Part shown: piece by piece, positions 9,611-21,280 of the stretch
Numbering within the stretch: the stretch's first letter is position 1
Layout: each line of letters begins with the position of its first letter
Assembly: GCF_900176145.1 (NCBI RefSeq)
Contig: NZ_FWWY01000001.1
Location: 563,517-627,516, forward strand
Length of the DNA stretch: 64,000 nucleotides
DNA from: Sulfobacillus thermosulfidooxidans DSM 9293
GTDB lineage: Bacteria; Bacillota; Sulfobacillia; Sulfobacillales; Sulfobacillaceae
Reading direction: 5' to 3'
Translations under genes and position numbers: made by a program
The notes under the pieces: model-generated
Database searches by the model: none
The model's input: the letters and a program-made list of their open reading frames with translations, nothing else
What the model was told of the DNA's origin: nothing

Positions 9611-10621
9611 TTAATACCCCAGCTCCTCGTCATTTACGGGCTTACGGAAGGTCCAGTATAACCAGCTTTGATACCCCAAAATAATGGGCAAAATGATTAA
9701 AGCGGTCACGGACATGATATCAAGAGTATAGCTCGTCGACGATGCGTTATAAATCGTCAAACTCCAGGCCGGGTTAAGACTCGATACCATGACCCGCGGA
9801 AACAAAATCCGGAAAATACTAAAGGTAGTGGAGGCAATGGACACACTAAACAATACAAGCGTCCATCCGTTTTTGGTTAGGTACGATGCGAATCGCGCCA
9901 AAATCAATGCCAACACGGCCACCACTTGCAAAACAATGGCGAGAGAGTCCACATGGCCCAAAGAGCTCGGCAACCGATCCATCCAGACAAACCAAATCAC
10001 CAGCGCTATAAGTGCTGGCCATACCGTCTTTTGAGCCACCATTCGACCATGCTTGCGAGAACGGCTATCCCCTTTAATAGCCAGGTAGGCTCCTCCTTGA
10101 GTTAAGAACAATAAGATAAAGGTTAATGCCGCCCATAAGCTAAAGCCATTAAACAACGTTCCGAAATTACCCACATAAACCATGTGCCCATTAATTGGGA
10201 CCCCACGGACTAAATTGGCAAAGGCCATGCCCCATAAAATTGTGGTGAGCAACGATCCCGAAAAAATGAGCCAGTCCCAGGTTGCCCGCCATTTCGGACT
10301 TTTGTCCTGACTGCGATATTCCAATCCTACGCCTCTCACAATCAGGGCTAACAAAATGAGAATTAAGGCCAAATAAAACCCGCTAAACATCGTGGCATAC
10401 CAATAAGGAAATGCTGCAAATAATGCACCACCCGCGGCGACAAGCCAGACCTCATTGGCCGACCAAATAGGTCCAATGGCATTTAAGGATGCCCGCCGCT
10501 CGAGATCGGTATGATTGAGGAACGGATGCAACATTCCAACGCCGTAATCAAATCCTTCCAGAATGAAATATCCGGTAAAAAGTATGCCCACCAACACAAA
10601 CCATAATTCACGTAACCACAT
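9611..10621 (-). CDS. cydB: Cytochrome bd ubiquinol oxidase subunit II
   Basis: The 336-residue integral membrane protein has the CydB N-terminus (ELWFVLVGILFTGYFILEGFDYGVGML) and the conserved GPIWSANEVWLVAAGGALFAAFP stretch. Together with CydA it forms the quinol-oxidising, oxygen-reducing bd oxidase in the cytoplasmic membrane. It follows cydA by 62 nt, and cydD begins immediately after it. Confidence 0.95.
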   Translation of the reverse strand: MWLRELWFVLVGILFTGYFILEGFDYGVGMLHPFLNHTDLERRASLNAIGPIWSANEVWLVAAGGALFAAFPYWYATMFSGFYLALILILLALIVRGVGLEYRSQDKSPKWRATWDWLIFSGSLLTTILWGMAFANLVRGVPINGHMVYVGNFGTLFNGFSLWAALTFILLFLTQGGAYLAIKGDSRSRKHGRMVAQKTVWPALIALVIWFVWMDRLPSSLGHVDSLAIVLQVVAVLALILARFASYLTKNGWTLVLFSVSIASTTFSIFRILFPRVMVSSLNPAWSLTIYNASSTSYTLDIMSVTALIILPIILGYQSWLYWTFRKPVNDEELGY

Positions 10622-10683
10622 GATCTCACCTTCTTTGTTGGCATGTTGTTTTGCTCAGAAAATCTTGAAGGATGAGGTGGGGT

Positions 10684-12096
10684 TTACCGTGCAACCCCAC
10701 CGGTTCCAACAAATAGATCACTCGATTCGGTGGGTTTGTGCTGCAATTCCGGATCGGGATCAAGACCCTCTGCGATCGCTTTCTTCCACAAGTGAACAGC
10801 CGCATAAGCCATAGCACTGTAAAAGACTAAGAATCCAAGTAGAGACAATTCGATATCAAGCGCCGGGACAGAAGCCGTAGGAGAAACGCCTTGTTCCGTT
10901 AACTGCAACCCATAAACGACCCATGGTTGACGTCCCACTTCCGTCATGATCCACCCAGCGGAATTCGCCAAATACGGCAAGGCAATCGCCCAGGTAAGCA
11001 CCTTAAGAAACCATGTTTTTTGCGTAAAGCGATTTTTCTTCAACAAGTACAGCGCATAATAGGCTAGCGCAAGCATAGCGGTTCCCGCGAAAATCATGGT
11101 ACGGAATGAATAGAACGTTACAGCAACTGGAGGGATATAATCTCCCGGACCATATTGATGCACCATCTGGGCTTGCACTTGGTTAATACCTTCTACAGCC
11201 CCCGAAAGACGTTTGTACGCTAAGATCGTTAACATCTCAGGAATTTGAATCTGGAATGGATCGGTGTGCTTCTTCGCATCAATGATCGCGACCACACTCC
11301 ATGGAGCATGCTGTGAACTGGTATTCCACAACGCTTCAGCAGCAGCCAGTTTCATGGGTTGAGCTTTTACCAAGTGTGCTGCCTGAGCATCACCAATCAC
11401 AATCACCAAAACACTGGTAATAGCGGCAACAATTGTGGAAATCTTAAACGAACGGGAAAAAGCTTCCACATTTTTCTTCCGCCAAATCTGGTAGGCACTA
11501 ATGGATAACATGAAGAAAGAACCCGTTAAAATCGCGGCGATTTCCGTGTGGGGAAATTCCACCCATAATTGCGGGTTGGTCAAAATATCGCCAAAACTCG
11601 TCATAACAGCCCGACCATCCCGAATCACATATCCCACAGGTTCTTGCATCCACGAGTTCGCGGTTAAAATCCAAAATGCTGATAAACTCGTCCCCAAAGC
11701 GACTAACCAAATCGTGACGGCATGAGCCCGTGCGGATAAACGATCCCACCCAAAAGCCCAAGCGCCAATAAAGGTCGATTCCAAGAAGAAGGCTGCTAGA
11801 GCTTCAACCGCTAGAGGGGCACCAAAAACATCGCCCACAAACTTTGAATAAGTGGCCCAGTCTAAACCAAATTGAAATTCCTGGAGTAACCCGGTCACCA
11901 CACCCACGGCGAAGTTAATGAGAAACAAATGTCCCCAAAATTTCGCCAAATCTCGATAGACCTTATCTTTCGTCCGAACATATATCGTTTCTATAATGGC
12001 GATTAGAAAGGCCAATCCAATTGTGACCGGCACAAAGAAAAAGTGAAATACTGTTGTCACTCCGAACTGTAATTCGGCCCAACCTAATTGAGTCAT
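10684..12096 (-). CDS. cydA: Cytochrome bd ubiquinol oxidase subunit I
   Basis: The 470-residue subunit carries the haem ligands expected of CydA: His18 in VFHFFFVPVTIG, a second His in FPHTEIAAILTGS and a Met in GWIMTEVGRQPW, the last also being the conserved quinol-site motif. The loop between helices VI and VII is the short type found in Firmicute and CIO-like enzymes. It is the first gene of cydABDC, with AGGGGAGGGG upstream as the ribosome site, and its promoter overlaps a Rex operator. It would act as a high-affinity terminal oxidase under low oxygen. Confidence 0.95.
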   Translation of the reverse strand: MTQLGWAELQFGVTTVFHFFFVPVTIGLAFLIAIIETIYVRTKDKVYRDLAKFWGHLFLINFAVGVVTGLLQEFQFGLDWATYSKFVGDVFGAPLAVEALAAFFLESTFIGAWAFGWDRLSARAHAVTIWLVALGTSLSAFWILTANSWMQEPVGYVIRDGRAVMTSFGDILTNPQLWVEFPHTEIAAILTGSFFMLSISAYQIWRKKNVEAFSRSFKISTIVAAITSVLVIVIGDAQAAHLVKAQPMKLAAAEALWNTSSQHAPWSVVAIIDAKKHTDPFQIQIPEMLTILAYKRLSGAVEGINQVQAQMVHQYGPGDYIPPVAVTFYSFRTMIFAGTAMLALAYYALYLLKKNRFTQKTWFLKVLTWAIALPYLANSAGWIMTEVGRQPWVVYGLQLTEQGVSPTASVPALDIELSLLGFLVFYSAMAYAAVHLWKKAIAEGLDPDPELQHKPTESSDLFVGTGGVAR

Positions 12097-19403: not shown

Positions 19404-19640
19404 TATTCCGAGGTGATGACGTCAATAACCCCGCCGTAAACGGCGAGGCTTGGTAAAGCCTCAGATTGACTAGCCTCAGTGCTTTGGGCACTCCGTTGGG
19501 ATCGTCACGACACCTTGGGATACGCGTCCTAGTTCCAAGCCCTGTCGTCCGTGGTTAAAAGTCTTGTGGGGTAGAGACGGTGCTGCGGGCACGACAAGCG
19601 GTTCCAACATTGGCGAAGGACAACGCACTCCGAAAGGAGA
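19404..19640 (+). ncRNA. omega-RNA (HEARO RNA) of the IscB element
   Basis: Immediately inside the left end is the HEARO-type scaffold: ATAACCCCGCCGTAAACGGCG folds as CGCCG-TAAA-CGGCG, followed by a perfect 7-bp stem GAGGCTT/AAGCCTC (19445-19462) and a stem AGTGC/GCACT near 19478-19492, then a longer structured region reaching the iscB ribosome site (AAAGGAGA at 19633). In characterised IscB systems the ~16 nt just upstream of the scaffold is the guide; here that would be 19404-19419 (TATTCCGAGGTGATGA). Boundaries are inferred from the family, and the 3' end is uncertain. Confidence 0.72.
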
Positions 19641-19648
19641 TAGACGTG

Positions 19649-20905
19649 ATGCTCGTCTATGTATTAAACCAATACGGTAAACCCCTGATGCCTTGCGCTC
19701 CCCGAAAGGCTCGCCTGCTTCTTAAAGCCGGAAAAGCCCAGGTAGTACGCCGGACACCGTTTACAATCCAATTGCTCTACGGGAGTTCTGGATATCAGCA
19801 AGCCGTTTCTTTAGGTGTAGATGCTGGTACGATGTATATCGGTCTTTCCGCTACTACAGAAAAAAAGGTGCTGTTTGAGGCGGAAGTGATGCTTCGCACG
19901 GATATTCAAGAATTGCTTTCTACCCGGCGTGAGTTCCGCCGGGCAAGAAGACACCGCAAAACCCGGTATCGTAAACCCCGATTCTTGAATCGCCAGAAAC
20001 CGGAGAGGTGGCTGGCTCCTTCCGTACAGAACAAAGTCGATACCCATGCCAAGGTCATTCAGAGGGTGTTAAGCATCCTGCCCATTACCAACATCACCGT
20101 TGAAGTCGCCCAATTCGATATTCAGAAGATCAAAAACCCTGATATTGCCGGGACTGAATATCAACAGGGCGAACAAATGGGATTCTGGAACGTGCGGGAG
20201 TATGTGTTGTTTCGGGATAAACATACCTGCCAGCACTGCAAAGGCAAGTCAGGAGACAAGATCTTAAATGTCCACCACATCGAAAGCCGCAAGACGGGTG
20301 GGGATGCTCCTGGCAATTTGATTACTCTCTGCGATGCTTGCCACGTGAAAATCCACCGAGAAGGCCTTACTCATCTCTTTCAGAGGCAACAAAAGTCCTT
20401 CCGAGATGCCAGCCAAATGACGGTCATGCGGTGGTTTATCTATCGGGGTATCCAAAAAGTGTTCCCTCATGCCGAGGTGACCTATGGGTACATTACCAAG
20501 AACACCCGTATCCAAAACGGTTTAGAGAAAAGCCATCTAGTCGATGCCAGGTGCATCAGCGGGAATCCCACGGCAACGTCTTTGGCGGGCACATACCTCA
20601 TCAAACAGGTACGGGGGCAAAATCGGCAACTCCACAAAGCTACGATTCTCAAAGGCGGAGTGCGTAAAGCGAACAAATCTCCGAGCTTCGTTTTTGGTTT
20701 CCAGTTGTTCGATAAGGTGCGGTACAATGGGCAAGAGTGCTTTGTCTTTGGTAGGCGTTTGCGTGGTGCGTTCGATCTGCGGTTACTTGACGGAACAAAG
20801 ATAACTTCTGGAGCCAGCCATAACAAACTGACTTTGCTTGAACGTGCCTCAACCTTGTTAATTCAGCTTGAGAAAGGAGGAAAGGCGGCTTCCTCTCCGG
20901 CCTAA
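19649..20905 (+). CDS. iscB: IscB RNA-guided nuclease (RuvC + HNH)
   Basis: This is a 418-residue protein. In order: N-terminal PLMP/RRXRR domain (PLMPCAPRKARLLLKAGKAQ, 12-31); RuvC-I SLGVDAG with Asp58; arginine-rich bridge helix (~93-110); RuvC-II TVEVAQFD with Glu152; an HNH domain 194-237 with CQHC, LNVHHIES (His209/210) and CDACH zinc cysteines; and RuvC-III KSHLVDARC with Asp299. All expected catalytic residues of both nuclease centres are present. IscB is the ancestor-like relative of Cas9 and cuts DNA guided by omega-RNA. The start is ATG at 19649 after AAAGGAGA, matching the family N-terminus MLVYVLNQYGKP. The stop lies within the right-end hairpin. Confidence 0.93.
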   Translation: MLVYVLNQYGKPLMPCAPRKARLLLKAGKAQVVRRTPFTIQLLYGSSGYQQAVSLGVDAGTMYIGLSATTEKKVLFEAEVMLRTDIQELLSTRREFRRARRHRKTRYRKPRFLNRQKPERWLAPSVQNKVDTHAKVIQRVLSILPITNITVEVAQFDIQKIKNPDIAGTEYQQGEQMGFWNVREYVLFRDKHTCQHCKGKSGDKILNVHHIESRKTGGDAPGNLITLCDACHVKIHREGLTHLFQRQQKSFRDASQMTVMRWFIYRGIQKVFPHAEVTYGYITKNTRIQNGLEKSHLVDARCISGNPTATSLAGTYLIKQVRGQNRQLHKATILKGGVRKANKSPSFVFGFQLFDKVRYNGQECFVFGRRLRGAFDLRLLDGTKITSGASHNKLTLLERASTLLIQLEKGGKAASSPA

Positions 20906-20914
20906 ACGCCGGAG
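20895..20914 (+). repeat. Right-end hairpin of IscB element
   Basis: A 7-bp perfect stem CTCCGGC/GCCGGAG with loop CTAAAC contains the iscB stop codon. Subterminal hairpins of this kind are what Y1 transposases recognise in IS200/IS605 elements; it may also end the iscB transcript. Confidence 0.6.
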
Positions 20915-20932
20915 TCCCCGCCACCGATCTGG

Positions 20933-21280
20933 ATGGATTTCGATTTAGGAGTGGTTTTTCACGTCAACGACGCCTCTTCTCAAAAGCAGCGCGCCGCTTT
21001 AAAAAATATTTCTAATTTGCTAGCCGAAATGCCCGAGATTCCCGTAGAATTAGTCGTCCAAGGTGACGCCATTAATTTGGTTGTTTCGAACGAGACGACA
21101 CTCGCCCAAGAACTCGCTGCCTTGCAACAACAAGGCGTTGTGATTGCCGTCTGTCACAATACAATGAAAGCCAAGGGTGTCACAGAAGCCGAATTGTTAC
21201 CGGGAATGACAATCGTTCCTTCGGCCGTCGGCGAATTGGTGCGCCGGCAACGCCAAGGATTAGCGTATATTAAACCCTAA
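20933..21280 (+). CDS. DsrE/DsrF-like family protein
   Basis: The 115-residue protein matches the COG1416-type DsrE fold: VVFHVND at the start, ELVVQGDAINLVV, the single conserved cysteine in VIAVCHNTM (about residue 82) and the tail GMTIVPSAVGELVRRQRQGLAYIKP. Relatives take part in sulfur relay or are of unknown role. The visible ATG has no ribosome site, because the IscB element ends 8 nt before it. If the element is removed, the left flank supplies GAGGTG-ATGA and, with the right junction at 20924, the frame is continuous (M-T-I-W-M-D-F...). Expression may therefore be altered by the insertion. Confidence 0.75.
   Translation: MDFDLGVVFHVNDASSQKQRAALKNISNLLAEMPEIPVELVVQGDAINLVVSNETTLAQELAALQQQGVVIAVCHNTMKAKGVTEAELLPGMTIVPSAVGELVRRQRQGLAYIKP

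What the first reader, a model, noticed from the sequence alone, without database searches (positions are those of the whole stretch)
19404..20924. Complete IscB/omega-RNA element with intact nuclease centres and no transposase
Seen: RuvC residues Asp58, Glu152, Asp299 and an HNH with His209/210, plus a HEARO-type RNA scaffold with perfect stems directly upstream. Known: IscB is an RNA-guided nuclease related to the ancestor of Cas9, and the ~16 nt before the scaffold acts as guide. Inferred: guide TATTCCGAGGTGATGA (19404-19419), and a target-adjacent motif read from the right flank, beginning near CGATCT. A lone, intact copy without tnpA could be mobilised in trans or be a retained host function.
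Basis: partly seen in the sequence, partly recalled or inferred. Interest (0 to 1): 0.75.

Follow-up and report, generated by a model that had tools for sequence, protein, structure and literature searches.

The report
IscB element docked at start codon
This is an intact IscB RNA-guided nuclease element that has landed exactly between the ribosome-binding site and the start codon of a host gene, and a survey of relatives shows that such elements often land there and carry their own ribosome-binding site and hairpin to the junction, which would explain how they can sit in front of useful genes without silencing them.

Summary
19421-19628 is a full-length HEARO omega-RNA (133.7 bits, cut-off 83), and 19649-20905 encodes a complete IscB with invariant D58, E152, H210 and D299. 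The element spans about 19421-20932. The right-hand motif is ATGGA at 20933, not CGATCT. The copy is not alone: the genome has three more HEARO loci and 14 Y1-transposase hits, though none of these lies in the window.

The new point is where it sits. ATGGA is the start codon of a DsrE-family gene, and the guide is that gene's old Shine-Dalgarno (SD) region (GAGGTGatgac|ATGG). This is general. In 102 non-redundant IscB loci SD motifs peak just left of the element (43 against about 16; p=2e-9). In 29 of 72 an open reading frame starts at the motif (background 7.4%). In 7 of 18 annotated plasmids the element abuts the annotated start codon. Elements carry their own SD beside the right-end hairpin, 5-11 nt from the start codon. 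Three such right ends without nuclease precede start codons.

I infer that the element swaps its own ribosome-binding site for the host's; this is untested. No prior description was found, but key papers were not held.

The parts
19405..19420 (+). Guide (16 nt, ATTCCGAGGTGATGAC): left flank of the element, containing the former Shine-Dalgarno sequence GAGGTG of the DsrE gene
   Evidence: Left end fixed by HEARO position 1 in relatives; the orthologue in G007 has GAGGTGaagaaagccATG. The 5' end of the RNA was not tested.
19421..19628 (+). HEARO / omega-RNA scaffold, starting at the element's left end
   Evidence: Rfam RF02033, 133.7 bits, full length
19649..20905 (+). iscB, 418 aa, RuvC (D58, E152, D299) and HNH (H210)
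20872..20880 (+). GAAAGGAGG, element-borne Shine-Dalgarno-like sequence inside the 3' end of iscB
   Evidence: Conserved in close relatives; SD enrichment at this place in 74 elements. Use by ribosomes is inferred.
20884..20922 (+). Right-end hairpin (GGCGG...CCGCC); the iscB stop codon lies in its loop
20933..20937 (+). Right-flank motif ATGGA (TAM by position), which is the start codon of the DsrE gene
   Evidence: Subfamily alignment ATG(A/G); ORF list
20933..21280 (+). DsrE-family gene whose ribosome-binding site and start codon are separated by the element
   Evidence: Pfam DsrE PF02635; orthologues in 25 relatives

Best explanation
This is an intact, transposase-less IscB/omega-RNA element of the IS200/IS605 superfamily, about 19421-20932. 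Shown: it lies exactly between the native SD region and the start codon of a DsrE-family gene on the same strand, so by position its TAM (ATGGA) is a start codon and its guide is the gene's old ribosome-binding site. Shown in a survey: this placement is strongly over-represented among IscB elements of many phyla, and the elements carry an SD beside a right-end hairpin that ends a few bases before the start codon. Inferred: after insertion the element's own SD, brought near the start codon by the hairpin (or, in some relatives, an IscB stop codon overlapping the start codon), keeps the host gene translated, so the insertion is tolerated even in front of important genes. Inferred: IscB with this guide cuts the uninterrupted allele (ribosome-binding site plus start codon), which would help retain or spread the element; movement would use a Y1 transposase supplied in trans.
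For: Identity. Placement in the window; ortholog-verified second case in G002 against G005 and G006. Generality: SD core left of the element 43/102 against 9-23/102 in control windows, p 2.4e-9; long open frame starts at the TAM in 29/72 against 7.4% background, and frame 0 to frame 2 is 39 to 7; expected share 1.7% at random, 8% if coding sequence is barred; annotated start codon exactly at the TAM in 7 of 18 plasmid loci; RuvA, HisA and prephenate dehydrogenase products match curated models from residue 1 or 2. Element-borne SD next to the hairpin. Right ends without IscB or HEARO, upstream of start codons, in G003 (same DsrE gene), G019 and G015.
Against: No expression, translation or cleavage data. 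The window's own leader does not fold better than shuffled sequence (z -0.8 and -1.3), and in that fold its SD is partly paired. About 60% of surveyed elements are not at a recognisable start codon. The elements L101, L105, L107 and L110 have no clear SD before the hairpin. Selection and insertion preference cannot be told apart with these data.
Confidence: 0.6

Rival explanations
1. Survivorship only: insertion occurs at any NTGR tetranucleotide, insertions inside genes are purged, and those at start codons are the visible remainder. The SD before the hairpin serves something else, for example it is simply coding sequence or part of a transposase recognition structure.
For: The published TAMs of IsrB (NTGA, NTG, NTGG) resemble start codons by themselves, so some excess at start codons is expected. 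Several surveyed elements lie inside genes or shortly upstream of an SD.
Against: If coding sequence were barred, only about 8% would fall on start codons against about 40% seen. The SD sits at a fixed place beside the hairpin and outlives the nuclease in G003.
Confidence: 0.25
2. Domesticated host function: IscB has been kept at this locus to regulate or protect the DsrE gene or its region.
For: Intact catalytic residues and RNA; placement directly upstream of one gene.
Against: The orthologous interval lacks IscB in the congeners examined, the closest relative has lost all but the right end, and relatives sit at unrelated genes.
Confidence: 0.05
3. A stranded element: structurally intact but no longer moving or cutting, kept only because it does little harm.
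For: No transposase in the element. It is the only full-length member of its subfamily in the genome; L085 holds a partial, related HEARO.
Against: ORF, RNA and both ends are intact, and relatives at 73-81% identity sit at other places in two congeners. Y1 transposases are abundant in the genome.
Confidence: 0.1

Closest known systems
IscB / HEARO (ISC) elements of the IS200/IS605 superfamily
   Same: RRXRR, RuvC and HNH protein, HEARO RNA directly upstream, guide from the left flank, TAM from the right flank, no adjacent tnpA (few HEARO nucleases lie beside TnpA: PMC9755519)
   Different: Nothing in the element itself; the link of TAM to start codon and of guide to ribosome-binding site was not found in the papers available
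OgeuIscB (PDB 7XHT, 8CSZ)
   Same: Best-matching solved structures together with other IscB entries, E about 4e-43, catalytic residues aligned
   Different: 418 against 496 aa; from memory its TAM is NWRRNA, unlike the NTGR motif seen here
IsrB
   Same: RuvC architecture; published TAMs NTGA, NTG, NTGG (PMC9581776), like the right-flank motif here
   Different: IsrB lacks the HNH domain, present here
Leaders with a hairpin between SD and start codon, such as phage T4 genes 25 and 38 (from memory)
   Same: SD, then hairpin, then start codon, with a short effective spacer
   Different: Here the leader would be carried in by a mobile element

Membership tests
IscB | RRXRR/IscB protein family | tested here: met
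   PF14239 E 2.6e-69; guided_IscB 390 bits, cut-off 175
IscB | RuvC and HNH catalytic residues | tested here: met
   D58, E152, H210, D299 invariant in 13 proteins
IscB | HEARO omega-RNA directly upstream | tested here: met
   RF02033 full length, 133.7 bits
IscB | Guide and TAM at the two flanks of the insertion | tested here: met
   Ends defined by comparison with relatives; by position only
IscB | RNA-guided DNA cleavage | not testable with these tools
   Needs biochemistry
IS200/IS605 transposon | Y1 TnpA in the element | tested here: not met
   None in the window; 14 hits elsewhere in the genome. Absence is usual for HEARO elements.
IS200/IS605 transposon | Subterminal hairpin and insertion beside a short fixed motif | tested here: met
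   Right-end hairpin followed by ATG(A/G)
IS200/IS605 transposon | Mobilised by a Y1 transposase | not testable with these tools
   The comparison of ends with the multi-copy tnpA element was inconclusive
IsrB | No HNH domain | tested here: not met
   HNH PF01844 present
Cas9d (type II-D) | Full-length Cas9d model match | tested here: not met
   25.9 bits against a cut-off of 375, RuvC-I part only

The most novel reading that the evidence does not exclude
IscB elements are start-codon docking elements: their TAM is a start codon, their guide is a ribosome-binding site, and they bring their own SD and bridging hairpin (or a stop codon overlapping the start codon) so that the invaded gene stays translated. 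When the nuclease decays, the right end can stay behind as the gene's ribosome-binding leader.
Probability: 0.5. Interest if true: 0.8.

Novelty: new member of a known kind. Interest (0 to 1): 0.6.

Why it matters
It offers a reason why IscB/IsrB TAMs read NTGA or NTGG, why such elements persist upstream of important genes (ruvA, hisA, parB), and what the right end may do beyond transposition. It predicts that many natural IscB guides are ribosome-binding sites, a specific and testable statement about what these relatives of the ancestor of Cas9 cut in nature. The element in the window is itself an ordinary member.

Tried and rejected
(1) TAM at CGATCT: rejected by subfamily alignment. (2) Reading the ends from the closest relative's empty site: G003 is not empty; it keeps a right end with a different loop sequence. 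(3) Linking the element to the multi-copy tnpA/tnpB insertion sequence of the genome: its tnpA-side end resembles the right end of a different, GTG-flanked IscB subfamily, but its conserved flank does not match the IscB motif; no conclusion. (4) A DsrE-specific association: two insertions sit at DsrE-type genes but most others do not, so probably chance. (5) Self-targeting: the guide region occurs once in the genome; the only near match (3 mismatches in 20) is the ribosome-binding site of an Hsp20-like gene followed by ATGC, which lacks the motif. (6) The automatic right-end caller miscalled several loci (for example L106, L111, L112, L115); this adds noise to the 29 of 72, and its tie rule between NTGR sites 3 nt apart may slightly favour start codons. 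The left-flank test and the plasmid annotation do not depend on it. (7) Searches failed on limits or input; nothing was lost.

Full report
WHAT WAS CHECKED. The Rfam HEARO covariance model matches 19421-19628 over its full length at 133.7 bits. The ORF from ATG 19649 to TAA 20903-20905 is 418 aa and matches RRXRR, HNH and the curated RNA-guided IscB model. D58, E152, D299 and H210 are invariant in 13 IscB proteins, and the best solved homologues are IscB structures. Two coordinates change. The left end is G19421, where relatives begin GTCAA while the base before is random, so the 16-nt guide is 19405-19420. The right end is about 20932.

NOT ALONE. The genome (G000, 3.86 Mb) has three further HEARO matches: one with an IscB 37% identical, one internal-deletion derivative (omega-RNA, about 22 codons of IscB and the right end; L084), and one weak. 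A partial IscB-type hit lies near the first. There are 14 Y1-transposase hits, none in the window. The window's IscB subfamily is present at 73-81% identity in two congeners at other places.

WHERE IT SITS. Aligning right ends of the subfamily shows a hairpin and then ATG(A/G). In the window this ATG, at 20933, starts a DsrE-family gene. Joined without the element, the flanks read ...TATTCCGAGGTGATGAC|ATGGATTTCG..., an SD 5 nt before the start codon. Congeners lacking the element mostly have an SD directly before the start of the orthologous gene; G007 has GAGGTGaagaaagccATGGAG. In G002 the 81% relative sits at the start codon of a DsrE paralogue whose uninterrupted orthologues in G005 and G006 read GGAGGacacatccaatg and GGAGGccacatccggtg up to the end of the aligned start codon. 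So by position the guide is the host gene's ribosome-binding region and the TAM is its start codon.

IS IT GENERAL? I collected 160 further IscB loci from genomes and viral contigs besides those of the host's relatives. Three measures agree. First, without using any ORF or right-end call, pairing to the anti-SD peaks in the bases just left of the element in 102 non-redundant loci: SD core 43 of 102 against 9-23 of 102 in nine control windows, Fisher p 2.4e-9. Second, with right ends called from hairpins only, the frame starting at the TAM is the long open one in 39 loci, against 7 and 3 for the other two frames; a strict criterion is met by 29 of 72 against 7.4% of background sites. The third frame is closed by construction whenever the TAM is NTGA, so the informative comparison is 39 against 7. 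If insertions hit any RTGR site, 1.7% would fall on start codons; if coding sequence were barred, 8%. Third, in 18 plasmid loci with existing annotation, 7 have the annotated start codon exactly at the TAM: thioredoxin, metallophosphoesterase, parB, DUF4400 and three hypothetical proteins. These 18 were taken from the annotated, non-duplicate records among the 30 best hits. Products read from the TAM include RuvA, HisA and a prephenate dehydrogenase, matching curated models from residue 1 or 2; these examples were picked from loci already seen to be open, so they illustrate and do not count. The Allochromatium warmingii IscB locus (L185) also has an ORF, by eye a GGDEF protein, starting at its TAM. 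Published IsrB TAMs are NTGA, NTG or NTGG, and the term 'start codon' does not occur in that paper.

HOW IT LIKELY WORKS. Insertion between SD and start codon should silence the gene. Yet the elements carry an SD of their own: anti-SD pairing is strongest immediately 5' of the right-end hairpin in 74 elements, mean -4.0 against about -1 kcal/mol. In the window this is GAAAGGAGG (20872-20880), 3 nt before the hairpin, and the hairpin ends 10 nt before the ATG. If the hairpin forms, the effective SD-to-start distance is about 13 nt here and about 10 nt in close relatives. In 8 of 74 elements the IscB stop codon is instead the TGA of the target NTGA, a 4-nt overlap typical of translational coupling; in three plasmid loci the stop TGA shares its A with the ATG. 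In G003 the omega-RNA and IscB are gone from the same locus, but AAAGGAGGGA, the hairpin and the ATG remain, with the SD unpaired in the predicted fold. Two similar right ends precede a 318-aa ORF, by eye a sugar-transport permease, and a 230-aa ORF; that they derive from elements is inferred. I infer that the element replaces the host's ribosome-binding site by its own. This is not shown and needs a reporter assay. The window's own leader does not fold better than shuffled sequence. Whether the site preference reflects insertion or selection is open.

PRIOR KNOWLEDGE. Ten full-text searches found no paper linking IscB insertion to start codons or ribosome-binding sites. Three key papers are not held. 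From memory, the first HEARO description reports integration beside ATGA or GTGA; if so, the motif is old and the ribosome-binding-site link is the new part. Few HEARO nucleases lie beside TnpA in earlier surveys, so the missing tnpA is ordinary.

VERDICT. The element is a sound, ordinary IscB member. The placement is real and, in this sample, statistically general; the mechanism offered for it is a specific hypothesis with moderate support.

Noticed in passing
L084 about 10520-10980 (G000:C1 about 218.5 kb): Internal-deletion derivative: full omega-RNA, about 22 codons of IscB and a right end, no nuclease; a possible guide RNA used in trans.
   Followed up: partly
window 19627-19652: The omega-RNA 3' end holds CTCCGAAAGGAG, a small hairpin that pairs the SD of iscB itself; the same sequence recurs in relatives and could couple RNA binding to iscB translation.
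   Followed up: no
L023 about 1459-1503 (G003): The right end left at the DsrE gene in G003 has an inner hairpin sequence unlike its relatives, possibly an inversion between the outer arms.
   Followed up: no
L111, L112, L115, L117, L119; L290, L299, L302: The IscB reading frame runs through the right end and its stop codon is supplied or completed by the target site, overlapping the downstream start codon.
   Followed up: partly
L281 about 1503-1522 (G000:C1 about 634.57 kb): The guide resembles the ribosome-binding site of an Hsp20-like gene (3 mismatches in 20); guides taken from ribosome-binding sites may have near matches elsewhere.
   Followed up: yes
L282-L284 (G000:C1): Multi-copy tnpA/tnpB insertion sequence whose tnpA-side end (GCGGGCATTGTG) resembles the right end of the GTG-flanked IscB subfamily (GCGGGCATTTG).
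   Followed up: partly
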